The notes under the pieces: generated by a model
Databases searched by the model: none
Seen by the model: the letters and a program-made list of their open reading frames with translations, nothing else
Told to the model about the DNA's origin: nothing
Program-made: the position numbers and the translations under genes
Shown here: positions 23,291 through 63,760 of the stretch, one piece after another
Numbering within the stretch: position 1 is the stretch's first letter
How the letters are laid out: every line of letters begins with the position of its first letter
Source of the DNA: Promethearchaeia archaeon
GTDB taxonomy: Archaea; Asgardarchaeota; Lokiarchaeia; Sigyniarchaeales; SOKP01
DNA: 64,000 nucleotides
Direction of reading: 5' to 3'
NCBI GenBank assembly: GCA_029856105.1
Contig: JAHQWH010000193.1
Coordinates: 1-64,000, forward strand

Positions 23291-23671
23291 TTAAACTAAG
23301 TTAACTACTCTGTTGATTTCGGCATGTAGTTGAATTACAGAAAAGGGTTTTTCAATAAATGAAATAGCACCTATTTCAAGCGCTCGTCCTTTAATTGAAT
23401 TATCTGCGCTTGTAAAAATAACTTTAGTGTGGTTATTGAATTTCATCAATTCGATGGTCGCGTCAATTCCATTTTTAACTGGCATTCGATGATCCATTAA
23501 AATTACATCCGGTTTAGGCGAGAGGGATTTGAATTTTTCAATGGCTTCTTTTCCGTTGCTTGCTTTATCAACGACTTTAAATCCGAACGTCGTTAGCATC
23601 ATCTCGTATAATCTTTGCAACGACAAATCGTCTTCTACGATAAATACGGAAACCATTATACCAAATACCAT
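23291..23671 (-). CDS. Stand-alone response regulator receiver (CheY-like)
   Basis: VSVFIVEDDLSLQRLYEMML...DVILMDHRMPVKNGIDA...KVIFTSADNSIKGRALEIGAISFIEKPF; likely start at second Met (about 23656). Confidence 0.88.
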   Translation of the reverse strand: MVFGIMVSVFIVEDDLSLQRLYEMMLTTFGFKVVDKASNGKEAIEKFKSLSPKPDVILMDHRMPVKNGIDATIELMKFNNHTKVIFTSADNSIKGRALEIGAISFIEKPFSVIQLHAEINRVVNLV

Positions 23672-23851: not shown

Positions 23852-24664
23852 TTAATTCTTTAAAAACCTTTTTGAAGAGAATCGTATGCCGGTAAACAGG
23901 AAAAACAAAGAGAAAATCAATGTTAACGGTAAATGTCCAATAACAATGTAGGCAAAAACAGGTTCTGATGAGTAAGCAAATAATACAATAGTTACCGCTA
24001 AATGGATGATAGAGTTCGCAATGGCAATTCTTCGATTTGGAGATAGAATACCAAAAAGAAAATTAGGAAATAGAAATAGAATTATGATATTTCCAGTTGA
24101 TAACAGAATCAAAGCCGGAAAAAATTTTGTGAACAGATCATCACCATAAAGAAATCGAGTTAGGTCAAGAGTCGCAAAAATAAAAAGAGTGGCATAAATA
24201 CTGAGCAAAATTAAAGGGTAGATTAGCGATCCGTTAATTAACCACGATATTGCCACTCTAATTATGGGGGAGCTTATAGTTTTTCCTTTTAAGTTGCTTT
24301 GAATGTTTTTTTCCATTTCTTCTTGAATGATTTTTTCTGTGTCATAATCAGGCGAATAGGAGTCGATAAATTCTTGTAAAATGTTTTTCAAAATCTTAGC
24401 AACTAATTCGTTGTTATCTTTTGAACTCACGATCGCGGCTCCGAGTATCCGTTCGTCTTGTTTTGGGACTACGATAAGTTTATTATTTTCCCCAAGATCA
24501 ACGGTTTTGACTGCCGTACCTAAGGCTTCTCTACTAAAATTAGTGATAGATGTGAAAAACCCTATTAATAAATTATCGTCGTACTTTTGTTCTCTCTTAA
24601 AATCTTTGGAATATAATAACCTTCCGTTTTCGTCCATAAGATAAAGATTTTTTAGCATACTCAT
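23852..24664 (-). CDS. Longin/roadblock-like N-terminal domain fused to four TM helices
   Basis: LYLMDENGRLLYSKDF...DDNLLIGFFTSITNFSREALGTAVKTVDLGENNKLIVVPKQDERILGAAIVSSKDNNELVAKILKNILQEFIDSY pattern followed by about 4 hydrophobic segments. Confidence 0.6.
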   Translation of the reverse strand: MSMLKNLYLMDENGRLLYSKDFKREQKYDDNLLIGFFTSITNFSREALGTAVKTVDLGENNKLIVVPKQDERILGAAIVSSKDNNELVAKILKNILQEFIDSYSPDYDTEKIIQEEMEKNIQSNLKGKTISSPIIRVAISWLINGSLIYPLILLSIYATLFIFATLDLTRFLYGDDLFTKFFPALILLSTGNIIILFLFPNFLFGILSPNRRIAIANSIIHLAVTIVLFAYSSEPVFAYIVIGHLPLTLIFSLFFLFTGIRFSSKRFLKN

Positions 24665-24697
24665 TCCTCATATTTTATTATAATTTGGTTTTAAATT

Positions 24698-26404
24698 TTA
24701 TATATTATCAACAAATTCTAAATATTCTCCAATGGAGGCAGTAGATTTTTTAAAACATTGCAAACGCGGACCAAATAATTCTGTTATCTTTACGATTACA
24801 TTATTTGTATTTGATTTAAGAAAAATCTTATATTTTTCATTCTTTCTTTCTTCAATTATTACTTCAATTTCTTCCATTTCTTTTAGTTTTCTAATTAAGA
24901 ACTCTTCAGGATCGTTTAGTTCTATCGTTACAATCTCGCCATATTGAGGCAATTCTTTAATATAATCCTTAAAAGCTCCTATTTTTGATGCTCTTTTGGT
25001 GATCGTTAAAATTTGGTCGCAATTTAATACGACCTCTTCAGATCCATGGAAGATCATAATCACGTGAAATTCTTGCTTAATTTTATCCATGTAATTGTTA
25101 AATTTTTCGTATTCAAATTTTCCTAGAATTCCATAAGGTATTGAAAACATAATAATCGTTGGTGTCTGGATTAAAGCGCGTGCTATTGAAAAAAGAAGAT
25201 ATTCTAAAGGTGTTAACTCTGAGAATTTCTTATTTTTCTTATTTAGCATCCCAGTTACTTCTAAAACATTTTTTAAGAACTGTTTTTTACGACTGTATTT
25301 ATATGTTGTATCCGAAATTAAATCTTCAATAATTTCATCTATACCTTGACCTAATCCTGCATCTTTTAAAATTGCGTTGAATGCGTTCTTTCTCTCTTTA
25401 TATCTCTCATTCAAATTTATCTTGTATTGAATTGCTTTCTTTACTTTCATATTTGTTATTACTGAGTCGTAAGCTGGAGGTAAAAGAAAAATTTTCTCTT
25501 TTTCTTTTTTTGATAACGATTTTATTGGGTGTCCAAAAATTTCTATTGACCCCATAAAATCTAGTTGAGAGCCTGCTATGGTCTCAAACAGATTCAATAA
25601 GTCCAATCTGTGATCGACATTATTTAAATACTCTTCGTCGTACATTATGCCAATAGACTTTCCTCTATGAATTTTAAAAGAAAGATTATTAATTACTTCT
25701 CCCACTGACACGCCGTTAAGAACTAAATATTGGGAATCTTCTTTTAAAGGTTCGAGATTGACTTGGTTAGAAACAATTTCACATATTTTTTCTATTATTT
25801 CAAGAACATGCAGAGGATTTTCTATATCCCAATTTCTTATAATTTCTTTTTCGTTAAATTTTCTTTCAGTAATAATCCTTGATAAGGATCTTGAAAATGA
25901 AAAGGATGGTAAAATTGGGTATTTTTCAAATTTAATTTTTAATTTAGTAGCGAAATTGGGATAACAGATTCGAATCTCTCTGTAGTATGGGTTATTTTTT
26001 ATTTGATAATTTTCAAACTTACTATCAATTAGTTCAACTTCATAGTCCAAAATTTCTAAGCGTTTTTGAAATTCTTGTCTAATAAGTCTTCTCATATGCC
26101 GGATGATCTTCATTGGATTAATAAGACCATCTTCATCGAAGTCTGGATTAAATATAATCTCACTGAAATCAATCTCATCTTCAATAGGGGTATAAATTTT
26201 TAATAATGGAACTCCTTTCTCAAAGACATCGCTATTAGTAAAAAATAGTACTTCAATAAAGGATTTTTTATAAATCAAATCAATAATAGAAGCAATTCCA
26301 AAAGTATTTTCTCTGTAAGTCATCCAAAAACGTTTAGAAACTCTGACTGCGTCCAAAACCTTTAATCTTAATCGTTCTAATTCTACTTCTCTAGATTTCT
26401 TCAA
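24698..26404 (-). CDS. Catalytically degenerate ABC ATPase-like protein with N-terminal RWD/UBC-like region
   Basis: ABC-NBD layout (VLNGVSVGEVINNLSFKIHRGKSIGI...FSELTPLEYLLFSIARALIQTPTIIMFSIPYGILG) but Walker A, signature and Walker B residues absent. Start refined to TTG 26404..26402, 7 nt after GAGGTG. Confidence 0.7.
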   Translation of the reverse strand: MKKSREVELERLRLKVLDAVRVSKRFWMTYRENTFGIASIIDLIYKKSFIEVLFFTNSDVFEKGVPLLKIYTPIEDEIDFSEIIFNPDFDEDGLINPMKIIRHMRRLIRQEFQKRLEILDYEVELIDSKFENYQIKNNPYYREIRICYPNFATKLKIKFEKYPILPSFSFSRSLSRIITERKFNEKEIIRNWDIENPLHVLEIIEKICEIVSNQVNLEPLKEDSQYLVLNGVSVGEVINNLSFKIHRGKSIGIMYDEEYLNNVDHRLDLLNLFETIAGSQLDFMGSIEIFGHPIKSLSKKEKEKIFLLPPAYDSVITNMKVKKAIQYKINLNERYKERKNAFNAILKDAGLGQGIDEIIEDLISDTTYKYSRKKQFLKNVLEVTGMLNKKNKKFSELTPLEYLLFSIARALIQTPTIIMFSIPYGILGKFEYEKFNNYMDKIKQEFHVIMIFHGSEEVVLNCDQILTITKRASKIGAFKDYIKELPQYGEIVTIELNDPEEFLIRKLKEMEEIEVIIEERKNEKYKIFLKSNTNNVIVKITELFGPRLQCFKKSTASIGEYLEFVDNI

Positions 26405-29400
26405 TTTCAGGCACCTCAATTAATTTGTATCTAAAGAATTGTTCCATTTTAGAATCGATTTGCTTTATTTCTTGGATGGAATCCTTACCAATTTTATTTT
26501 CGATTTTTTCAATTAGTTTTTTTAAGTTTAATTCGGTAAATAACGAATAATCAGTTCCCGCTTTATTTTCAAGAACGCTTTCTATGCCATCTATAGATTC
26601 GAGCGTTTCAATTAAGTTCTCATTTATCTCTTTGAAACATACTTCTATAGAACGTCCTTTTCCAGGTAATTGAGCTAAAAGGTTCTTTGGTTTCCCGAAG
26701 TCTATTACGCCGCGATCTCTACCGAAAATAGCAACGCGGTGGCAGAAGCGAGACTCTTCGGGGTAATGAGTTATTACAATTAGAGTAGTTCCAAATTGCT
26801 CGTTGATTTTTGTAAGGGCTAACCATAAGTTTTCACGTATGATAGGATCTAAGCCTGAAGTAGGTTCGTCTAAAATAAGAAATATTGGGGCGTGAATTAG
26901 CCCGATTGCAATGCTAACCCTTCTTTTTTGACCCCCCGAAAGATTTTTAATTAATTCATTTATTTTATCTTCAATCTCTAAGCTTCGCAAGAGTCTTTTT
27001 GACCTGCTTATTATTTCTTGCTCAGTTAGACCGTATTGATTTCCAAATGAGAGTAAATTATCAAGAACAGTGAAATTATGATAGATTTTCCCTAGATCTT
27101 GGGGTACATAGCCATATATGGGTCTAATCTTTTTAGAGTTTTTTTTGTTAATGTCCATTCCATAAATTTTACAAAATCCAGTAATTTTTCTCATTCCCAA
27201 CAACCCTTTTACAAAAGTAGATTTTCCTGCCCCACTTTCTCCTAAGATTCCTAATATTTGCCCATGATCTATTTTCATTGACACAGAGTCAACAATCAAT
27301 CTTCCACCAGCATACACACTAAAGTTTTCGCAATTAATTGCTGGAAATCTTTGTAAATAGGATGGAGTAATTTTTCCGCCAAGACCTACCTTTTCTATAA
27401 TGCGTTTTATTAAAGAAATTTTTTTACGAATTTTTAAAAATATATATAGCCCAATAAATCCAGCTTCAGTAAGTAAGATATAAATCAATAAATAATTCCA
27501 AGGTTTTGAATCAAAACTCTGGTCATATTTTAATTCGTCTATAATAATAATTCCATAGGGAGTGTTTCGTAAATCGGCTCCAAAATCGGGATTATCTCCT
27601 ACACCTCCAGTATTGGTGCTTATACATTCCGAAAACCAGATTAAAGCTTCTTGAATGTTATCTGGTTGAAAATTGTAGTCGTAAAGAGCCTTAGAAGCGA
27701 GATAGGTCACTAGAAAAGACGAAGGTAAATCTAAAAATTCCCCCATCATAGGTAGAAGGGAAAAACTTCCATCGGAAGTTTGAGAAAGCTTTAAAAAATC
27801 AATTGCGGTCATTTTAGACATTGGACCTTCAACAAAACCCTCGTAAAAAATTTGCAAACCGTAATAAGTAGAAATAACATCGCTATGAAATCCTATAACG
27901 ATTGAAAATCCTCCATCAGCATTTTGGCACGACCTTACCCATTGAGAAAGATTATTATAATGAATCCGATCTAACCCATTAATTAAATATAGAGAAGATA
28001 ACGCCCAATATGTACTTTCTACAGTGGACACATTCATATTGATCAAATTAGTAAATACTATAGAATAAGACCCAAAAAGAGATAATAAATATTCGATATC
28101 TTTCCCAACTCTGAAACCTCCATCAGAGTTTTGCAAGTTAGATAAGAAGTTTTTTGTCAGATTTAACGCATCTGGAGGAAACCAAGGCCAATATGCGGGA
28201 ATAAGCATTTGCAACAGATTTAATCCACAATAAGTAGCAAAAAGCGTTGCTTCTTGACCTGGTTGCGAACTAAATCCTCCATCGTGAATATTATAGCACG
28301 ATATTGTAAAATTTAAGATTTGGCTTTTTAAATATTGAAATTGCGCGGTCTGTATTGAATCGAGATACCCCATACTAAAATATGTTAAAATTCCGAAATA
28401 ATTAGTTTCAATTGTTATTTGCCCAAATAGAGCGTTCTTTGCTTGGAAAAAGTGTAGCCAATCGTAATAATCAATTTTAGTCTGGTTTATAAAATTACTT
28501 TGTAAAGGAGTAAGAAGTAACATGCTTTCTAAAATCTTGATTGATTTCATCGCCGCCCAACCAGATGTGAAATCAGACATAGTTACATTTGGACGTATAC
28601 CAAATCCCCCATCATTATTTGAACAATTTAAGACATATTCTAATGTTTTAGAAGCGTTTTTTAAAGGAAGCCCTAATAAATCTAGCGAAGAAATGGCATA
28701 ATAAGTTGATTGGACATCAGTAGTACCCGTTAATGTGTTAATATAACCCCCATCGAATGGGTTATACGATGCGTTAAAATAAGCTCCAATAAGTAATAGT
28801 TCAATTGAATTATAGGACATATTCATTCCTAAAAAAGATTTTACACCATAGAAGGTCGTTTCTGGATTTGAAACTAAAGAATTATTTGTTAATCGATAAC
28901 TACCTAAAAACCATGTAGAATTAATAAATTCTTCAATATTTTGGTTTAGAAGTAAAGAACTCTCTGATAAACTATATGCGAGTTCAATCGCACAGAATGT
29001 AGAAATAATATCAGAATCATTTAAGTATTGATTAGCCTTAAAACCCCAACCCCCTTCATTTAAAGAAGTTGAAATGTAGTTTGCGATATTACTCGTATCT
29101 CCAAGATTTATCTTGTGTTCAAGATACGATTTATTGGTTATTTCTAAAGTTTCGATTGCTTCATAGGTTGAAATTAAATTTCCAAATCCCGCTATATCTG
29201 AATAGGATCCATCTATATTTTGTTTTTCAAAGATATAATCAAAAAAGAAATTACGGTAAAAAGACTCAATATTTAGATTAGAATTAGGATTTATTAATTC
29301 AGGAGTATTAATACTTGAAAATGTGAAATTAATAGAGTCAATGGCTCTAAAATTTGAATCAATGTCGGGTTCTACAAATAGTCCTACATCGTTATGGTGA

Positions 29401-29573
29401 GTGCTTGTAAAGGAAGTTGCCATATTTTTAACTTGTTCTACGTTTTTTTCGTCAATATAATAAGTCCAACGAACATTTACTAAAACCAAAGTTATAACTG
29501 GAGTTCCTATGAGAATAAAGACTATAATAAAATTTTTTAGTCTTTTTTCGTTTTTCCGACTTAATTTTAAGAT
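26391..29573 (-). CDS. Fusion: N-terminal TM anchor, extracytoplasmic prenyltransferase/squalene-cyclase-like toroid, TM, ABC ATPase
   Basis: Repeats DGGYINTLTGTTDVQSTYYAISSL, NDGGFGIRPNVTMSDFTSGWAAMKSI, HDGGFSSQPGQEATLFATYCGL, ADGGFSIVIGFHSDVISTYYGL; TM WNYLLIYILLTEAGFIGLYIFLKI; GESGAGKST, LSGGQKRR, LILDEPTSGLDP. Upstream extension adds NYILKLSRKNEKRLKNFIIVFILIGTPVIT; candidate ATC start at 29573. Confidence 0.85.
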   Translation of the reverse strand: MLKLSRKNEKRLKNFIIVFILIGTPVITLVLVNVRWTYYIDEKNVEQVKNMATSFTSTHHNDVGLFVEPDIDSNFRAIDSINFTFSSINTPELINPNSNLNIESFYRNFFFDYIFEKQNIDGSYSDIAGFGNLISTYEAIETLEITNKSYLEHKINLGDTSNIANYISTSLNEGGWGFKANQYLNDSDIISTFCAIELAYSLSESSLLLNQNIEEFINSTWFLGSYRLTNNSLVSNPETTFYGVKSFLGMNMSYNSIELLLIGAYFNASYNPFDGGYINTLTGTTDVQSTYYAISSLDLLGLPLKNASKTLEYVLNCSNNDGGFGIRPNVTMSDFTSGWAAMKSIKILESMLLLTPLQSNFINQTKIDYYDWLHFFQAKNALFGQITIETNYFGILTYFSMGYLDSIQTAQFQYLKSQILNFTISCYNIHDGGFSSQPGQEATLFATYCGLNLLQMLIPAYWPWFPPDALNLTKNFLSNLQNSDGGFRVGKDIEYLLSLFGSYSIVFTNLINMNVSTVESTYWALSSLYLINGLDRIHYNNLSQWVRSCQNADGGFSIVIGFHSDVISTYYGLQIFYEGFVEGPMSKMTAIDFLKLSQTSDGSFSLLPMMGEFLDLPSSFLVTYLASKALYDYNFQPDNIQEALIWFSECISTNTGGVGDNPDFGADLRNTPYGIIIIDELKYDQSFDSKPWNYLLIYILLTEAGFIGLYIFLKIRKKISLIKRIIEKVGLGGKITPSYLQRFPAINCENFSVYAGGRLIVDSVSMKIDHGQILGILGESGAGKSTFVKGLLGMRKITGFCKIYGMDINKKNSKKIRPIYGYVPQDLGKIYHNFTVLDNLLSFGNQYGLTEQEIISRSKRLLRSLEIEDKINELIKNLSGGQKRRVSIAIGLIHAPIFLILDEPTSGLDPIIRENLWLALTKINEQFGTTLIVITHYPEESRFCHRVAIFGRDRGVIDFGKPKNLLAQLPGKGRSIEVCFKEINENLIETLESIDGIESVLENKAGTDYSLFTELNLKKLIEKIENKIGKDSIQEIKQIDSKMEQFFRYKLIEVPEIEEI

Positions 29574-30604
29574 ATAATTCCACCCTCACTATTTATTTCG
29601 CTAATATCCACTTCATTTTCTTTTGTTTCTTCCTCTTGGATTCTAATCTGAAAGAGCCTTCTAAAATTTGCGATATCTCTACTCATGGAATTAATTTTAA
29701 CTTCATTCTCAAATAAATATTTCATTAATTTAGGTAAATTGTTCTCAAAATTCTCCATTAATACTTCGATTGTTTCATTTCCAACGCGTAATACATTTTT
29801 GACTGAATTAAATTGTTGAACCGTTTTTATTCCTTTTTGATCTAAATTTTCGATTGAAATTCTCGCTACTAAACCACCACTTGGTAAAGAAGATATTAAA
29901 TTTTGAGGTGTGTCAAATTCGAGTAATTTTCCCTGCCTTAATATCGCAGTTTTATCACATATTAGTGCTGCTTCTAAATCGTGTGTAATAATAAACATAG
30001 TTGTGTTTAAATGCTGGTTTAACTTCTTTAGATAACTGAGTATATCATAGCGTTTCGACGCATCCACACCAGTCGTGGGTTCGTCAAGAAAGAGAACTTT
30101 TGGGTTATGTATTAAACCAATAGCCATTGAGAGTCGCTTCTTTTCGCCCCCGCTCATCTGCGATACCTTTTTTTTCCAAGTGTCCTCAGGAATGTCTAAT
30201 ATTTTAAACAGCTTTTCAGCGGTTTCTTTAGCCTTTTTTTTGTCCATTCCATAAGTAGATGTAAAAACTTCGACATTTGCCATAGGATTTAATTCAAAAT
30301 ATAAATTCAATAGTTCTAGTTGAGGAACGTATCCAATATTACTTAGAATTTTTGAATGATTTTTTTTTTTACTCGGATTTAAACCTGTAACTACTACATT
30401 TCCACTCCAATTTTTCTTTTCAATTTGGCATGTTAATACCCTAATAATTGTTGTTTTTCCTGCACCTGAAATTCCAAACATACCAATGATTTCTCCTTGC
30501 TTCACATTAAAAGATACATCATGCACTATTTGGTTTTTCCCAAATGTAACATTTAAGTTTTCCACAAGTACCATTGAATTATCAGAAGGCTTAGAAATCT
30601 CCAT
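29567..30604 (-). CDS. ABC transporter ATP-binding protein
   Basis: GISGAGKTT Walker A, MSGGEKKRLS signature, VLFLDEPTTGVD Walker B; ATG 30604 preceded by GAGGTG. Confidence 0.92.
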   Translation of the reverse strand: MEISKPSDNSMVLVENLNVTFGKNQIVHDVSFNVKQGEIIGMFGISGAGKTTIIRVLTCQIEKKNWSGNVVVTGLNPSKKKNHSKILSNIGYVPQLELLNLYFELNPMANVEVFTSTYGMDKKKAKETAEKLFKILDIPEDTWKKKVSQMSGGEKKRLSMAIGLIHNPKVLFLDEPTTGVDASKRYDILSYLKKLNQHLNTTMFIITHDLEAALICDKTAILRQGKLLEFDTPQNLISSLPSGGLVARISIENLDQKGIKTVQQFNSVKNVLRVGNETIEVLMENFENNLPKLMKYLFENEVKINSMSRDIANFRRLFQIRIQEEETKENEVDISEINSEGGIIS

Positions 30605-30605
30605 T

Positions 30606-31790
30606 TTACACCTCATATTTCCTTCTTTGAAAGATTATGAAAGAGATAATTACAAGAAAAACGCTAACACCTAACAAAGTAAAAAAATCAAAACCAAATA
30701 CTGATTTTCCCTTAGTAACTATTCCTGTTATTAACGGACTTCCATGAGATAACGGAAGCGCGTATGCTATTATTTGTAAGTAAATCGGCATTGCATCAAT
30801 AGGAATAAATATTCCACTTAGAAGAATTAAAACCAGAAAAGTAGCAAAAAATAATTGGTTTGCTTGAGTTTTAGTTTTGCTAAATGTGCTAATAAAAATA
30901 CCTATAGCAAGGCCGGTAAATCCTAAAATGAATAATGCGAGGAATAAATCGAACAATGAACCTACTACATATAACCCAAATGCTAAAGCACTAATAACAA
31001 GTGAAAGATCTTGAATAATCAAAATGCTTGTATAAGTGATATATTTTGCAGATAGAATCTCAGCCCTTTTAACGGGAGTGAGCAATAATCTCGCAATTGG
31101 TTTTTCTTGAACTATTATTAAGATTGTTGAGACCATCCCAACGCCTATAACCATAAAAGAGAGAACAAGTACCATGTTATAATTATATTTAAAACTATAG
31201 CCTTCAGGTATCGAAAATTCTTCATTTCCAATAACTTCAAATTGAGGGGTTAAATTATTTTGGTTAACAAAAATTTTAATAGAATCGTAAACGGCATTTA
31301 AATTTTCTTGAATTTTTTTGATATCTGATGAATCTGATATACAATCTATTAAACCAGGATAACCCCAGATTAATAATTCAGAAAAGTCAACTGGAATTGC
31401 GATAATAACCTTAATTTTCTTTGAAGTTAAATAATTTCTAGCCGTTTCCATCGCATAAATCTCTTCAGAAGCGTTAAAAAATTGTATAAGATTCAATAAA
31501 TTTGAGCTGTTTACAGCCTCAACATATTTCATATTGTAATCATCTAATTTTGACTCGGTAAAATTATTTTCATTAATAAATGTATTTGAATCGTAGGAAA
31601 CTACAACACAATCTATAGGGTTTAAAGAAGAACCTGAAATATTAGCGGTTACTCCTAATAAGGCTACTACAAGAGGTGGAACTATCAGAGCTATAAAGAT
31701 ATTAAATTTATCAGTCCATAAGAGTTTAAATTCTTTCTTTATTTGTCTAACTAATCGAAATATGTTATTCTTAAAATTGCTCCGTTTAAT
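30606..31790 (-). CDS. ABC-2 type permease, apparent AUU start codon
   Basis: Track ORF starts internally at 31532; open frame continues upstream encoding RSNFKNNIFRLVRQIKKEFKLLWTDKFNIFIALIVPPLVVALLGVTANISG, homologous in layout to the paralogue N-terminus; only AUU at 31790..31788 fits SD GGAGGTG. Confidence 0.8.
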   Translation of the reverse strand: MKRSNFKNNIFRLVRQIKKEFKLLWTDKFNIFIALIVPPLVVALLGVTANISGSSLNPIDCVVVSYDSNTFINENNFTESKLDDYNMKYVEAVNSSNLLNLIQFFNASEEIYAMETARNYLTSKKIKVIIAIPVDFSELLIWGYPGLIDCISDSSDIKKIQENLNAVYDSIKIFVNQNNLTPQFEVIGNEEFSIPEGYSFKYNYNMVLVLSFMVIGVGMVSTILIIVQEKPIARLLLTPVKRAEILSAKYITYTSILIIQDLSLVISALAFGLYVVGSLFDLFLALFILGFTGLAIGIFISTFSKTKTQANQLFFATFLVLILLSGIFIPIDAMPIYLQIIAYALPLSHGSPLITGIVTKGKSVFGFDFFTLLGVSVFLVIISFIIFQRRKYEV

Positions 31791-31793
31791 TCT

Positions 31794-32945
31794 TTACACC
31801 TCCACTTTTTTAAACTTATATGCGATATAAGCAATTAGTAGAAAAACAAAAGAAATTAAAAGAATAGAAAGAACATGCTCTAAATTTAACGATAAACCTC
31901 TTAATGTTATATCTGTTATGAGGACTGAAGCGTGGCTTAAAGGAAGCATGTCTGAAAGAAATCGCGCACTCCCCAAAGACTCAGGCGGCATTATAGTTCC
32001 TGAAAAAATTATTATAATAATAAACAGCATCAAGTACATTTGATTAGCTCCTTGTTCTGTTGGGCTAATTGCAGAGATAAATAAACCTATGGCTATTCCA
32101 CTAAAGCCAATCATTATTAAAACTAGATAAAAATTAAATAACGAGCCTAAACTATATAAACCGAAAAATGATGTCATTACGAATATTTCTGTAGCTTGCA
32201 TTATCATTATTATAGTGTTTGCAATTAGTTTACTAAGGATTATATCCCTTTTTGCCGTAGGAGTTATAAGCATTCGCGGAAGCGGACCCTCAGAAACAAT
32301 TGTTAGAGATGTTAAATTCATCGTAGTCCCAATTATTATTATTGGTAGGATCAGAGCTAATGAATAATTAAGTAATTGAGATTCCCATGAAGGCACTCCA
32401 AATTCAAGATGAGGGACCATTATTGTAAAATTTTCCAACATATTAATCTCAACGCGAAAAAGAGCAAGTGGTTCTTGGAGAGCCACTTCAATTGCACCAA
32501 CAGCGCTTAGATCAGAGCCATCTATATAATAGATTAATATAGGATTAGTTTTATTTGCTACAGATTCTGAGAAATTTTGAGGGAGTACAATAAAAACATC
32601 GATTACTTCATTTTTTAATAAATTAACACACCGATAATATGCTTCGTCATACTCTACACTGGTGCTACTATTATAGTATCGATAAAGATCCCATGTTGTT
32701 GTGTTTTGTTCCATAATCGAGATAAAAATATCATCGTATTGAGAAGAATTTGACGGGAAATTATCGTAAGTAGGCATTTCATCGAGAGTTATAATCGCAG
32801 AGGTAAAAAATTTCATAGGGCCAACGCCCGTAGTTAGCCCAAAAATGACAATTAATATCATAGGTATTGTAAATAATAGAATTAAAGTTCTTTTATCCGA
32901 TTTAATTCTACCAAATTCTTTTTGTATTAATCCGCCTAAGCTCAT
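31794..32945 (-). CDS. ABC-2 type permease
   Basis: MSLGGLIQKEFGRIKSDKRTLILLFTIPMILIVIFGLTTG; 6 TM with large extracytoplasmic loop. Confidence 0.9.
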   Translation of the reverse strand: MSLGGLIQKEFGRIKSDKRTLILLFTIPMILIVIFGLTTGVGPMKFFTSAIITLDEMPTYDNFPSNSSQYDDIFISIMEQNTTTWDLYRYYNSSTSVEYDEAYYRCVNLLKNEVIDVFIVLPQNFSESVANKTNPILIYYIDGSDLSAVGAIEVALQEPLALFRVEINMLENFTIMVPHLEFGVPSWESQLLNYSLALILPIIIIGTTMNLTSLTIVSEGPLPRMLITPTAKRDIILSKLIANTIIMIMQATEIFVMTSFFGLYSLGSLFNFYLVLIMIGFSGIAIGLFISAISPTEQGANQMYLMLFIIIIIFSGTIMPPESLGSARFLSDMLPLSHASVLITDITLRGLSLNLEHVLSILLISFVFLLIAYIAYKFKKVEV

Positions 32946-33037
32946 TATATTAAGCTCTTACAAGAAGTATTCTATAAATTTGAAGATTTGAATAATAATA
33001 AATGATTAATGATATTTAGGCGAATTTTCTTAAAAAT

Positions 33038-33601
33038 TTACTGCACAGTTTTGTCAACTGTTTGAAAAAATTTAAGATCCGATACTGGTGTTAATTCATT
33101 CATTTTCAAAAGAGACCTTCTTTTTTTGTCTTTAACAATAAATTTTTGAAAAATTTCATTGTTATCACTTATAAATTCCCAAAATTCTTCATAAATATCT
33201 TGTAATGTTCTAGGATTTTTCCTATTAAAGCTCTCTTTGATTATTTTTGTTTCTTTTTTAATATCTGGCTTTTTTTGCATGTTTTTGATAGAATTTTCCT
33301 TTGATACTGAAGATTTGTATAGCTTTAAACTATTTACAAAACTTTCTTCGTAATTGTGTCTTAGATTGTTCTTCTTTTTGTCATTCTCTAATTGAAAATC
33401 AACTTTTTGATATCCCCGTATTTTAAAATTTTTGTCTATAAATAATTGGAAGTGATGTTGACAAATCTCTCCTTTAGGAACAGAGACGGTAGTTAATTGA
33501 GAAGCTTGGTTAATTACGGACTTAGGAATCCTTATCGTGTTCTGTGCTTTACACACAGGACAAATAACTTGAATATATCTATTAACTGTTATAGCTTCCA
33601 T
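33038..33601 (-). CDS. Zn-binding N-terminal module protein of unknown function
   Basis: ICPVCKAQNTIRIPKSVINQ...TVSVPKGEICQHHFQLFIDKNFKIRGYQKVDF; shares module with 57916-58764. Confidence 0.65.
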   Translation of the reverse strand: MEAITVNRYIQVICPVCKAQNTIRIPKSVINQASQLTTVSVPKGEICQHHFQLFIDKNFKIRGYQKVDFQLENDKKKNNLRHNYEESFVNSLKLYKSSVSKENSIKNMQKKPDIKKETKIIKESFNRKNPRTLQDIYEEFWEFISDNNEIFQKFIVKDKKRRSLLKMNELTPVSDLKFFQTVDKTVQ

Positions 33602-60314: not shown

Positions 60315-62948
60315 TTAGTTAATTAAATCAATTCTCTCGTCTTTTTCTTTAACAACTAATTTAATTAACAATATTCCAAAAACAGTTGGAAGAATTCCGA
60401 CACCTATTACTGCAAATAAAATAAGTTGACCCATATTCTCAAAACTCACAAATAAAAATAGTTGTCCAACAGAATCTATGAGATAGTGCGCAATTATGCT
60501 AGGTATTATACTCTTAGTTTTGAGAAACATGTATCCGAAGAGAAACCCTAATAGAGCCGCGTATATTACTTGTAAAATTGTTAGAACCAAATATCTCCCA
60601 ACTAATAAATTAACAAAATGAAATAATCCAAATAATACGGATACTATTATCCACGTTGTTCTTTGAGAATATCTCCTTAAATTTAATTTAGTGATTACAC
60701 CCCTAAATGCTACTTCCTCCCATATCCCTGGAATCAACATTATAATAAATAAAAACCATCCAAAGAGCGCAATACTAGAACCAGGGGTTCCAAAAATCAC
60801 CTCTAAATCAAAGATATAATGCCCGAAAAGATTAGCTGTAATATAAGTGCTAATGAAAAATATAATAGAACATCCAATTCCAAGCATGATATTGCGAACT
60901 ATTTTATTATCAAATTTCAACCCAATGTTTTTTACGAATTCTTTTAGAGATTGTTTTCCCTCTGGAAGATTTAAGGAGCGTGGAACAATTAATAACCAAA
61001 ATAATGCCATTACTCCAAAAGTGACAAAGAAATCAAAAAAGAGTAACGCAATAAAGGGGATATCTACGAAAATATCTACGATAATGATTAAAGGTAATTC
61101 AATAAATATTGGTAAAAATAAGAATCCCGCATATAATAACAATAGAATTCCTGTACCAAAGATAGGGTATTTTCTGAAGCCTTCCCTTATACTTATCATT
61201 ATCTTCTTTCCTAGTACTTTTGGAAACATGCCATTAAATGAAATTAGTAAAATGCCCAAAGAGAACAAGCCCGCAATAAAAGTTACTAAAAACATCAAAC
61301 TGGCACCGTAAAAAATTAATAATATGCCCCCTAAGACGTTAAATGCTAAGTAAATCAAATGTAAACCAACTCCTATTATAATCCATTTAATTACTTTTTT
61401 TTCTGGATTAACTTCCTCAACAACAAATTTATATTTCATTCTACCGAAAAATCGAATTTTCAATTGGAACATGGATAATAGCAATGTTAATACTACTGGA
61501 TACCATGCAATAAACGACAGCAAATAGTTTAAAAATTCGGGATTTCCAATAAACAGAAAAATCGGTAGGAAATAAGAAATCGTCTGAATTGAACCCAATA
61601 AAAACAATTTCGCTTTAGCTTGGTCGCGAGGATTAATTGGTAAAGATGAGAGTATTGCCGCCCCAGAATCTTCCATATTTAAAAATGCTGAAGTAAGCAT
61701 CATTGAAACCATGGGTTGGTACATAGTTAGAAAAGACCAAATTACAATATAGTCTTCATAATAAGAAGCGCCTAGTCCGCTTGAACTCATCAAAAGGGGA
61801 ATTAAAGTTATAAAAGGGAAGATGAAAGGTATAATTACAAACATAAATGTTTGCATATCTCTTGTCGTAGTAGATAAATCCTTACGAATATAAGCTTTTA
61901 TTGGGGATCGTGATTCAATAAGCACTTCTATTTCTTTTTCAGGTTTTTTTTTGGAAGTAGTCTTTTTTTTTGTTTCAAGTGCGGCTGAAGAAGTTACTAT
62001 CCGCATTGACTTTAACGCTCTTTTATAGGCGAATCGGGTTAATAATATGGAGAGCGCGACTCCTAAAATAGTAGTAATCCAAAAAATAGCAGAAAAACTC
62101 GTTGGTTCAATAGCCAATGTTAATAAATTAGTTGATGCAAAAGGAAACGGGATTAAACTCATAATGATTTTTACTATAAAGGGAATTTCAAGTGAAGCGC
62201 TTAAATAAAATAATTCACTCGAAACAGTTATTATCCATTGAATAAAAAACGAAGCGGAAAATATTACGATTACATAACTCAACATAGTAAATATACGGAT
62301 AAGTGTCGCCTTCTTAGAACCTGCTTCGCTAACTTTTAATACGCGACTAATCCTTTCTGCTATTAAAACCAGTACGCTAAAAGAAAACATAACGTTAATT
62401 ATAGAAACAAATGCAGCAATTAAAGCCAATATTATATTTAGAGATATGATGAACATTATAACAGGAAAAGCAAGAGTCATAGTTATAAGTCCGATATCTA
62501 AATTGCGAAAAACCGTCATAAATCCTAATTTCCTTAATTTATCCTTAGAGATGGGTAGGGTCTCGTACCACCTAAAAGCCTCTCCAGACATCATAGCCGC
62601 AATACTGAACATCCCCAACATTGTTAAATATAATAATTGCATAATAAAAAATGCTCCAAAAAGAATACTTCCGGGGATTAAGACCGAATCTGCAGAAATT
62701 AGAGGATTGCCAAGGGCGTATTTAGCTTCTAGATAAGTACTTATTGGTAAAAATGAGATAGATAAAAACAATCCTGAAAATATTATTTTGATAGCAATAA
62801 CTTGTTGTTTAATAGATTTTTTATTTTTTTTGTATTTCTCCATAAGGCGGGCTTGGTTAGCTCCAGAAGATTGAACCTGCCCCTCCATCGTGATCTCTAA
62901 ATTAGTGAATTTAGCCAGTTTATAGAGCGTTAAATCCTTTTCTGTCAT
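60315..62948 (-). CDS. ABC-2-like permease fused to C-terminal CPBP intramembrane protease domain
   Basis: Multi-TM N-terminal half; C-terminal EEVAFRGVITKLNLRRYSQRTTWIIVSVLFGLFHFVNLLVGRY...SIIAHYLIDSVGQ. Confidence 0.85.
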   Translation of the reverse strand: MTEKDLTLYKLAKFTNLEITMEGQVQSSGANQARLMEKYKKNKKSIKQQVIAIKIIFSGLFLSISFLPISTYLEAKYALGNPLISADSVLIPGSILFGAFFIMQLLYLTMLGMFSIAAMMSGEAFRWYETLPISKDKLRKLGFMTVFRNLDIGLITMTLAFPVIMFIISLNIILALIAAFVSIINVMFSFSVLVLIAERISRVLKVSEAGSKKATLIRIFTMLSYVIVIFSASFFIQWIITVSSELFYLSASLEIPFIVKIIMSLIPFPFASTNLLTLAIEPTSFSAIFWITTILGVALSILLTRFAYKRALKSMRIVTSSAALETKKKTTSKKKPEKEIEVLIESRSPIKAYIRKDLSTTTRDMQTFMFVIIPFIFPFITLIPLLMSSSGLGASYYEDYIVIWSFLTMYQPMVSMMLTSAFLNMEDSGAAILSSLPINPRDQAKAKLFLLGSIQTISYFLPIFLFIGNPEFLNYLLSFIAWYPVVLTLLLSMFQLKIRFFGRMKYKFVVEEVNPEKKVIKWIIIGVGLHLIYLAFNVLGGILLIFYGASLMFLVTFIAGLFSLGILLISFNGMFPKVLGKKIMISIREGFRKYPIFGTGILLLLYAGFLFLPIFIELPLIIIVDIFVDIPFIALLFFDFFVTFGVMALFWLLIVPRSLNLPEGKQSLKEFVKNIGLKFDNKIVRNIMLGIGCSIIFFISTYITANLFGHYIFDLEVIFGTPGSSIALFGWFLFIIMLIPGIWEEVAFRGVITKLNLRRYSQRTTWIIVSVLFGLFHFVNLLVGRYLVLTILQVIYAALLGFLFGYMFLKTKSIIPSIIAHYLIDSVGQLFLFVSFENMGQLILFAVIGVGILPTVFGILLIKLVVKEKDERIDLIN

Positions 62949-62962
62949 AAAAATGAATCACC

Positions 62963-63760
62963 TTATTTTTTGGTGTTTTTAAAAGATTTTCGCAATTTTT
63001 TAACAATTTCGTTGACGCTCGTATCTTGTTCTGTCAATCTTAAGAAAACGTCTTCTAAACTCGCACCTAACTTGTCGGCTTGCTGTCGAAGTTCGTCCAT
63101 CGTTCCAATTCCAACCAATTTTCCCTTACTCATTATTGCTATTCGGTTACATAAATCTTCTGCTATTTCCATGATATGGGTAGAAAAAAGAACGGAACCT
63201 CCTTTCTCAATATGTATATCCAATATTTCTTTAACAACTCTTACGGACTTCGCGTCAAGTCCTGCCAAAGGCTCGTCTAAAATTAGTAAATCTGGGTCGT
63301 GAAGAATTGCCGAAATAATTTGAATTTTCTGCTTATTCCCGTGGGATAAAGTTGCTACTAATTGTTCGTAATAATCCAAGGCTCCCAAACTTTCCAGATA
63401 CTCTTTCGCTCGCTCTGTGGTTTCCTCTGCGTCTAATCTACGAATAGAAGCTATAAAATTAAACAAATCTTTAGGCGTGAGGGATTTGAATATGAGGGGC
63501 TCTTCTGAGACATAGCCTACTCGACTCTTAATTTGGACCTCATCTGTTTCTGGGTTTAAGCCCATTATAGTTATATTTCCTTCTTTGGGCTCTAATAACC
63601 CTAACAACATTTTTAAAGTAGTTGTCTTACCCGCTCCGTTCGGCCCTAAGAGCCCGAAAACTTCACCCTTTTTTACGTCAAAGGATATTCCATTTACTGC
63701 TTTAACATCCCCAAAAAACTTTTTCAATTCGTTAACAGAAATCATAACATTATCGTTCAT
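62963..63760 (-). CDS. ABC transporter ATP-binding protein (CcmA/NatA-like)
   Basis: GLLGPNGAGKTTTLKMLLGLLEP, LSHGNKQKIQII, LLILDEPLAGLD. Confidence 0.93.
   Translation of the reverse strand: MNDNVMISVNELKKFFGDVKAVNGISFDVKKGEVFGLLGPNGAGKTTTLKMLLGLLEPKEGNITIMGLNPETDEVQIKSRVGYVSEEPLIFKSLTPKDLFNFIASIRRLDAEETTERAKEYLESLGALDYYEQLVATLSHGNKQKIQIISAILHDPDLLILDEPLAGLDAKSVRVVKEILDIHIEKGGSVLFSTHIMEIAEDLCNRIAIMSKGKLVGIGTMDELRQQADKLGASLEDVFLRLTEQDTSVNEIVKKLRKSFKNTKK

What the first reader, a model, noticed from the sequence alone, without database searches (positions are those of the whole stretch)
23852..33601. Candidate undescribed system: ABC exporter-like operon with a toroid-ATPase fusion, a dead ATPase and a longin-like membrane protein
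Seven consecutive minus-strand genes with overlaps or short gaps (the largest are 93 nt after the first gene and 34 nt before the last): Zn-module protein, ABC-2 permease, ABC-2 permease, ABC ATPase, toroid-TM-ABC ATPase, degenerate ABC ATPase, longin-like 4-TM protein. Two permeases plus two intact and one inactive NBD, plus a GTPase-adaptor-type domain, is not a standard ABC-2 exporter layout. Inference: a membrane machine whose extracytoplasmic toroid captures or guides a substrate and is mechanically coupled to ATP hydrolysis, with the longin-like and RWD-like parts linking it to cytosolic regulation.
Basis: partly seen in the sequence, partly recalled or inferred. Interest (0 to 1): 0.9.

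Follow-up and report, generated by a model that had tools for sequence, protein, structure and literature searches.

The report
Lokiarchaeal ABC machine with extracellular toroid
Lokiarchaea and their relatives the Helarchaea, archaea close to the ancestry of eukaryotes, share a six-gene membrane machine that joins an ATP-driven exporter to a ring-shaped domain predicted to lie outside the cell and to two folds best known from eukaryotic trafficking and ubiquitin proteins; its substrate is unknown, and in several species one of its motor genes carries what looks like a tiny RNA intron.

Summary
Six of the seven minus-strand genes (23852-32945) form a conserved unit: two ABC-2 permeases, an intact ABC ATPase, a TM1-toroid-TM2-ABC ATPase fusion, a pseudo-ATPase with two RWD/UBC-like domains, and a longin-fold four-TM protein. 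The marker g6 is in 46 of 83 genomes of the class (Lokiarchaeota plus Helarchaeota) and none of 144 other Asgard genomes; the fusion is contiguous in dozens of assemblies, so no artefact. The seventh gene (Zn module) is resident flank: it remains in relatives that lack the six genes as a block. One relative keeps a truncated permease scar. The toroid resembles prenyltransferase beta subunits but lacks the Zn ligands and the DxDD motif, so it is probably a binding ring, not an enzyme. Best model (inferred): a heterodimeric type V ABC machine that passes ATP-driven motion to an external toroid handling a hydrophobic, perhaps isoprenoid, ligand; pseudo-ATPase and longin protein are cytosolic scaffold. 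Side discovery: in seven genomes the intact ATPase gene is interrupted at one identical codon by a 31-34 nt bulge-helix-bulge intron candidate whose removal restores DEPTTGVD exactly. No matching description was found in the open-access library searched.

The parts
31794..32945 (-). g2: ABC-2 permease 1 (383 aa, 6 TM, large external loop between TM1 and TM2)
   Evidence: Pfam ABC2_membrane_3 5.5e-21; TM scan; conserved first gene of the unit
30606..31790 (-). g3: ABC-2 permease 2 (~394 aa, 6 TM); start most likely ATT at 31790 (GGAGGTG-TAAAGA-ATT)
   Evidence: Pfam ABC2_membrane_3 4e-20; a relative has ATG at the aligned position
29567..30604 (-). g4: intact ABC ATPase (start ATG 30604 or 30616)
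   Evidence: Pfam ABC_tran 2.3e-26; best NCBIfam models DrrA/GldA-like, below cut-off
30071..30072 (-). position in g4 (DEPTT^GVDA) where 7 relatives carry a bulge-helix-bulge intron candidate; the window copy has none
26391..29573 (-). g5: toroid-ABC ATPase fusion (~1060 aa), TM1 - toroid - TM2 - NBD
29472..29528 (-). g5 TM1 (N-terminal anchor)
   Evidence: hydropathy
27516..29393 (-). g5 alpha/alpha toroid, predicted extracellular; closest solved relatives RabGGTase/FTase beta subunits, without Zn ligands
   Evidence: PF00432 3.3e-34; phmmer PDB 5e-15; no conserved DxC or DxDD
27435..27491 (-). g5 TM2
   Evidence: hydropathy
26391..27290 (-). g5 NBD (26856-27290) with C-terminal extension; all ABC motifs intact in 21/21
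24698..26404 (-). g6: pseudo-ATPase (~568 aa) = tandem RWD/UBC-like units + degenerate NBD; likely start TTG 26404
   Evidence: AF2 pLDDT 88; ABC fold by profile 1.2e-14 and Foldseek; motifs lost in 24/24
25739..26383 (-). g6 tandem RWD/UBC-like region with invariant P163 and P166 and nearly invariant Y162 (YPxxP)
23852..24664 (-). g7: longin-fold domain (residues 1-105) + 4 TM
   Evidence: AF2; Foldseek to AP-2 sigma, COPI zeta, AP-3, TRAPP; weak Pfam Sybindin / Intu_longin_1
23291..23671 (-). single-domain response regulator, often adjacent within the genus (with a PAS-histidine kinase in several relatives); separable from the machine
   Evidence: PF00072 6.4e-23; HKs in L049, L051, L054, L056; G013 keeps HK+RR without the six genes
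33038..33601 (-). g1: Zn-module protein, NOT part of the machine (resident flank)
   Evidence: present in the empty-site relatives

Best explanation
A class-restricted (Lokiarchaeota/Helarchaeota) heterodimeric type V (ABC-2) ABC machine. Shown by sequence: permeases g2+g3, two intact NBDs (g4 and the C-terminal part of g5), and a toroid between two TM segments in the same chain as one NBD. Inferred: g2/g3 form the membrane core, with g4 and the g5 NBD as the ATP-hydrolysing pair beneath it. The toroid sits outside, tied through TM2 directly to its NBD, so NBD closure moves or opens it. Its ring, built like a prenyltransferase beta barrel but without catalytic residues, receives or guides a hydrophobic ligand (an isoprenoid lipid, lipid-linked glycan or lipidated protein) taken from the membrane by the permeases. 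g6 (pseudo-NBD with RWD-like domains) and g7 (longin on 4 TM) are a non-hydrolytic cytosolic scaffold that regulates the motor or links it to cytosolic partners.
For: Unit conserved in order across genera, families of the order and of the class, and still clustered after rearrangement in one Helarchaeon; g6 in 46 of 83 class genomes and 0 of 144 others. Lost as a block at a precise site, with a truncated-permease scar in one relative. Two canonical NBDs and one conserved pseudo-NBD. The NBD tree groups g4 with ATPase A of a sister ABC-2 system and puts g6 on a separate long branch; ATPase B of the sister system is the closest non-orthologous match to the g5 NBD (41-44% identity), although the tree does not resolve that grouping. 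Topology of the fusion. Toroid most like prenyltransferase beta, which binds isoprenoids, without DxC/DxDD. Longin and RWD-like folds. Foldseek places the g6 NBD near ABCA and NosDFY NBDs.
Against: No structure of the complex or of the toroid was computed; the ligand, direction of transport and interaction of g6/g7 with the core are inferred. Sequon density does not discriminate the outside location. No GTPase or substrate gene is linked. The RWD assignment rests on fold order, the YPxxP motif and intermediates, not on a strong direct match.
Confidence: 0.42

Rival explanations
1. An ordinary DrrAB/NatAB-like small-molecule or peptide exporter whose toroid, pseudo-ATPase and longin protein are accessory decorations.
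For: Best NCBIfam models of g4 and the g5 NBD are DrrA/GldA/NodI types, all below cut-off; ABC-2 permeases are generic.
Against: All six genes are kept and lost together; the pseudo-ATPase is preserved as a pseudo-ATPase in 24/24, which suggests a required non-catalytic role.
Confidence: 0.2
2. The toroid is an ecto-enzyme (cyclase, transferase or lyase of a new type) that acts on the exported product.
For: Toroid kinship to prenyltransferases; invariant residues of a GGxGDxPxFGxDLRN block and two invariant Cys in 21/21.
Against: No Zn-ligand DxC pattern and no DxDD conserved; aligned RabGGTase ligand positions differ.
Confidence: 0.15
3. A Bce-like detection module: the ABC machine senses an extracellular compound through the toroid and signals through the neighbouring two-component genes.
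For: Response regulator in the window, PAS-HisKA-HATPase kinases between g7 and the regulator in several relatives.
Against: The two-component genes were not seen next to the unit in most other genera and persist without it in G013; the response regulator has no output domain.
Confidence: 0.1
4. Two or more independent functions: a four-gene exporter (g2-g5) plus an unrelated g6-g7 pair that is only co-located.
For: g7 paralogues exist apart from the unit, as tandem pairs, in other class members; g6 is on the opposite strand in one Helarchaeon.
Against: g6 and g7 presence tracks the fusion across dozens of genomes; they are lost together.
Confidence: 0.13

Closest known systems
Type V / ABC-2 exporters (DrrAB, GldAFG, ABCA)
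   Same: Two ABC-2 permeases, NBDs of the DrrA/GldA/ABCA sequence and fold group
   Different: Extracellular toroid fused in the same chain as one NBD; conserved third pseudo-NBD with RWD-like units; longin-4TM subunit
NosDFY (ABC-2 machine acting on the periplasmic NosD)
   Same: ABC-2 NBD fold neighbour in Foldseek (7osf, 7o0y); works-like analogy of an outside protein driven by an inside motor (mechanism from general knowledge)
   Different: NosD is a separate beta-helix protein for copper delivery; here the outer part is an alpha toroid covalently tied to an NBD
YbbAP-TesA (type VII ABC with a lipid hydrolase, PMC12646458)
   Same: ATP-driven extraction of hydrophobic compounds from the membrane for an external partner (title and abstract)
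   Different: Type VII permease, separate hydrolase, bacterial
Protein prenyltransferase beta subunits (RabGGTase, FTase)
   Same: Closest solved relatives of the toroid
   Different: No Zn ligands, about 650 aa instead of about 330-430, predicted extracellular, fused to an ABC ATPase
Longin-fold subunits (AP sigma, COPI zeta, TRAPP)
   Same: Fold and topology
   Different: Fused to four TM helices, encoded in an ABC operon
Asgard subtilase-linked ABC-2 system
   Same: Paired NBDs; its ATPase A groups with g4 in the tree and its ATPase B is 41-44% identical to the g5 NBD; ABC-2 permeases beside a large external protein
   Different: External part is a separate subtilase; its ATPase B has a soluble N-terminus (TrmB-like in one member); no pseudo-ATPase or longin-TM gene seen there

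Membership tests
ABC-2 (type V) ABC exporter | ABC-2 permease domain, two protomers | tested here: met
   PF12698 above cut-off in g2 and g3
ABC-2 (type V) ABC exporter | two ATP-hydrolysing NBDs with complete motifs | tested here: met
   g4 above the PF00005 cut-off, motifs readable in the translation; g5 canonical in 21/21
ABC-2 (type V) ABC exporter | export activity | not testable with these tools
   needs a bench assay
Protein prenyltransferase beta / class II terpene cyclase | alpha/alpha toroid repeats | tested here: met
   PF00432 3.3e-34
Protein prenyltransferase beta / class II terpene cyclase | Zn ligands (DxC...H) or DxDD acid | tested here: not met
   absent or unconserved in 21 orthologues; aligned positions differ
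ABC ATPase (g6) | Walker A, signature, Walker B | tested here: not met
   lost in 24/24; fold kept: pseudo-ATPase
RWD/UBC superfamily (g6 N-terminus) | alpha-beta4-alpha fold with YPxxP | tested here: inconclusive
   fold order and motif fit; one member matches Pfam RWD at 0.0007; intermediate proteins match UQ_con above cut-off
Longin fold (g7 N-terminus) | beta2-alpha-beta3-alpha longin fold | tested here: met
Archaeal BHB intron (g4 of 7 relatives) | two 3-nt bulges flanking a 4-bp helix, exact restoration of the frame | tested here: met
   bulges and restoration 7/7; helix 4/4 in six, 3/4 in one
Archaeal BHB intron (g4 of 7 relatives) | splicing shown in RNA | not testable with these tools
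   genomes encode two tRNA_int_endo proteins but no RNA data
NosDFY-type ABC-2 machine | beta-helix NosD-type periplasmic partner | tested here: not met
   the outer part is an alpha toroid
Known anti-phage defence systems | match to a defence family | tested here: not met
   only generic ATPase cross-matches in PADLOC

The most novel reading that the evidence does not exclude
A previously undescribed Asgard membrane machine in which folds later used by eukaryotic vesicle-coat/tethering (longin) and ubiquitin-type (RWD/UBC) systems serve as regulatory subunits of an ABC motor that drives an extracellular isoprenoid-binding ring; expression of its motor gene in some species depends on tRNA-type splicing of the mRNA.
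Probability: 0.22. Interest if true: 0.88.

Novelty: new variant of a known kind. Interest (0 to 1): 0.72.

Why it matters
It is a defined six-gene unit in the Asgard class that contains Lokiarchaeota and Helarchaeota. It ties an ATP motor to an external ring and to two fold families known mainly from eukaryotic trafficking and ubiquitin biology, so it gives a concrete, testable setting for what longin and RWD-type domains did outside eukaryotic trafficking. The pseudo-ATPase kept as such over a class points to a third, non-hydrolytic NBD as a structural part. The intron candidate in its ATPase gene, in seven genomes of five genera, would be a pre-mRNA intron of the tRNA-splicing type in Asgard archaea; pre-mRNA introns of this type were first shown for cbf5 in Crenarchaea (PMC2738675), and gene callers would break such genes.

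Tried and rejected
Frameshift/assembly artefact of the fusion: rejected. Seventh gene as a part: rejected. Prenyltransferase or terpene-cyclase catalysis: not supported. Defence system: no specific match. Toroid-ABC association outside the class: weak toroid relatives in other archaea and bacteria have no ABC hit in the DNA held around them. N-glycosylation sequons as evidence of outside location: not discriminating, enriched in the NBD too. Profile searches of g7 and of the g6 N-terminus against PDB sequences gave nothing useful; the fold comparison was needed. Looking at downstream neighbours for a shared pathway: two genomes have a glycerol-3-phosphate oxidase, others do not, so no pathway link is claimed. 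Literature searches for the unit, for Asgard RWD and for Asgard mRNA BHB introns found no match; the library lacks most subscription journals.
Full report
What is there. The window is contig C194 of a 3.66 Mb genome; named relatives of the fusion are Candidatus Lokiarchaeota, Lokiarchaeia and Helarchaeota MAGs. Pfam supports two ABC-2 permeases, one ABC ATPase and one toroid-ABC ATPase fusion. The reading frame of the fusion extends upstream of the first ATG/GTG/TTG and adds a TM helix, giving the order cytosol-TM1-toroid-TM2-NBD, so the toroid is predicted outside.

Is it a real unit. The fusion is one open frame in about 30 relatives in the first genome search, at roughly 36-89% identity, and in about 40 named contigs (the two sets overlap). 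The order perm-perm-ABC-fusion-pseudoABC-longin recurs in the same genus, other genera of the family, another family of the order (L037) and another family of the class (L038); L039 shows the same order up to the contig end; in L040 (Helarchaeota) five genes remain clustered after rearrangement. Using the tandem RWD-like region of g6 as marker, 46 of 83 genomes of the class have a strong match and none of the 144 other Asgard genomes reaches E 0.001 (counted). Full-length g7 follows nearly the same set.

Presence and absence. In G003, G009, G021, G019 and G150 the upstream CoA-ligase-like gene, the Zn-module gene and the downstream FAD oxidase are contiguous, with the six genes and the response regulator missing. 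The Zn-module protein is therefore resident flank. G001 keeps the first ~130 codons of permease 1 followed by the response regulator, a deletion scar; G013 keeps the kinase and regulator without the six genes. Block loss in at least these cases fits a dispensable machine that works as a whole.

Subunits. g4 and the g5 NBD have intact motifs. g6 keeps the ABC fold but has lost Walker A, signature and Walker B in all 24 orthologues. Its N-terminal 215 residues form two alpha-beta4-alpha units in a confident model (pLDDT 88) with the YPxxP motif; direct Pfam support is weak (RWD 0.0007 in one member), but proteins that match the second unit (iE about 1e-14) also match UQ_con and RWD. g7 is a longin fold with four TM helices; the closest solved structures are AP-2 sigma, COPI zeta, AP-3 and TRAPP subunits at Foldseek E about 6e-4 to 1e-3. 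The toroid's closest solved relatives are RabGGTase and FTase beta, but neither the Zn-ligand DxC pattern nor DxDD is conserved.

Kin. Other Asgards, including some lacking the fusion, have a sister arrangement: ABC-2 permeases, an ATPase that groups with g4 (sisA), an ATPase that is 41-44% identical to the g5 NBD (sisB) with a soluble N-terminus, and a large subtilase with GldG-like and, in one member, MBTPS1-like domains. In the NBD tree sisA and g4 fall in one clade; g5 and sisB are each coherent but their grouping is not resolved. This suggests an old paired-NBD ABC-2 core to which different external parts were attached. Outside the class, weak toroid relatives were not found beside ABC genes.

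Mechanism. Shown: composition, topology signals, motif status, predicted folds of g6 and g7, linkage. Inferred: the core is g2/g3 with g4 and g5 NBDs; ATP-driven motion reaches the toroid through TM2 and the permease loops; the toroid binds a hydrophobic, perhaps isoprenoid, ligand; g6 and g7 are regulatory scaffold. Works-like analogues are NosDFY (NBD neighbour) and YbbAP-TesA (PMC12646458); it is not a member of either.

Intron candidate. In seven genomes of five genera the g4 gene is interrupted at the same codon, LDEPTT^GVDA, by 31-34 nt with stops or frameshifts. All seven have an ACA 5' bulge and a three-base 3' bulge on opposite strands of a 4-bp helix that changes together (UACC/GGUA, GACU/AGUU, AACU/AGUU; one copy has 3 of 4 pairs), and cutting after the second base of each bulge restores DEPTTGVD in 7/7. 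The reversed pattern gave no match in 79 genomes. The five genomes tested each encode two splicing-endonuclease proteins. This fits a bulge-helix-bulge pre-mRNA intron as described for cbf5 in Crenarchaea (PMC2738675); splicing itself is not shown.

Limits. Genome incompleteness inflates absences, though G009 (100%) and G019 (99%) lack the unit. Literature searches cover open-access papers only.

Noticed in passing
g4 of L192 (G014), L193 (G020), L190 (G026), L189 (G025), L194 (G023), L191 (G149), L195 (G161); window site 30071/30072: 31-34 nt bulge-helix-bulge intron candidate at one identical codon of the ABC ATPase gene, with covarying central helix and exact frame restoration in 7/7; absent in the window copy.
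   Followed up: yes
window 31790 (g3), ~29573 (g5), 26404 (g6): Internal genes appear to start at ATT, ATC/ATA and TTG behind Shine-Dalgarno-like GGAGG; no ATG/GTG/TTG near the start of g3 and g5 in most relatives, suggesting non-canonical, coupled initiation.
   Followed up: partly
L031-L036, L042-L045: Sister ABC-2 system in other Asgards with a large subtilase carrying GldG-like and, in L033, MBTPS1 (site-1 protease) fourth-domain matches.
   Followed up: partly
L180:4956-6617, L181:3482-5257, L183:475-2232: Asgard proteins of 550-590 aa with several tandem UBC/RWD-like units, matching UQ_con above cut-off.
   Followed up: partly
L184:4991-5671 (own genome C19): 226-aa protein with an RWD-like unit followed by a Prok-JAB match.
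   Followed up: no
L185:7180-9029, L186:6604-8568, L187:7082-8954: Tandem pairs of longin-4TM genes in other class members, apparently without the ABC genes.
   Followed up: partly
L048:5887-8623 (Loki_b31): About 2 kb insert with a 276-aa ORF and a duplicated 5' end of g4 ahead of the intact copy.
   Followed up: no
window 60315-63760: 877-aa ORF followed by a further ABC ATPase gene (ABC_tran at 63263-63697), another possible exporter.
   Followed up: no
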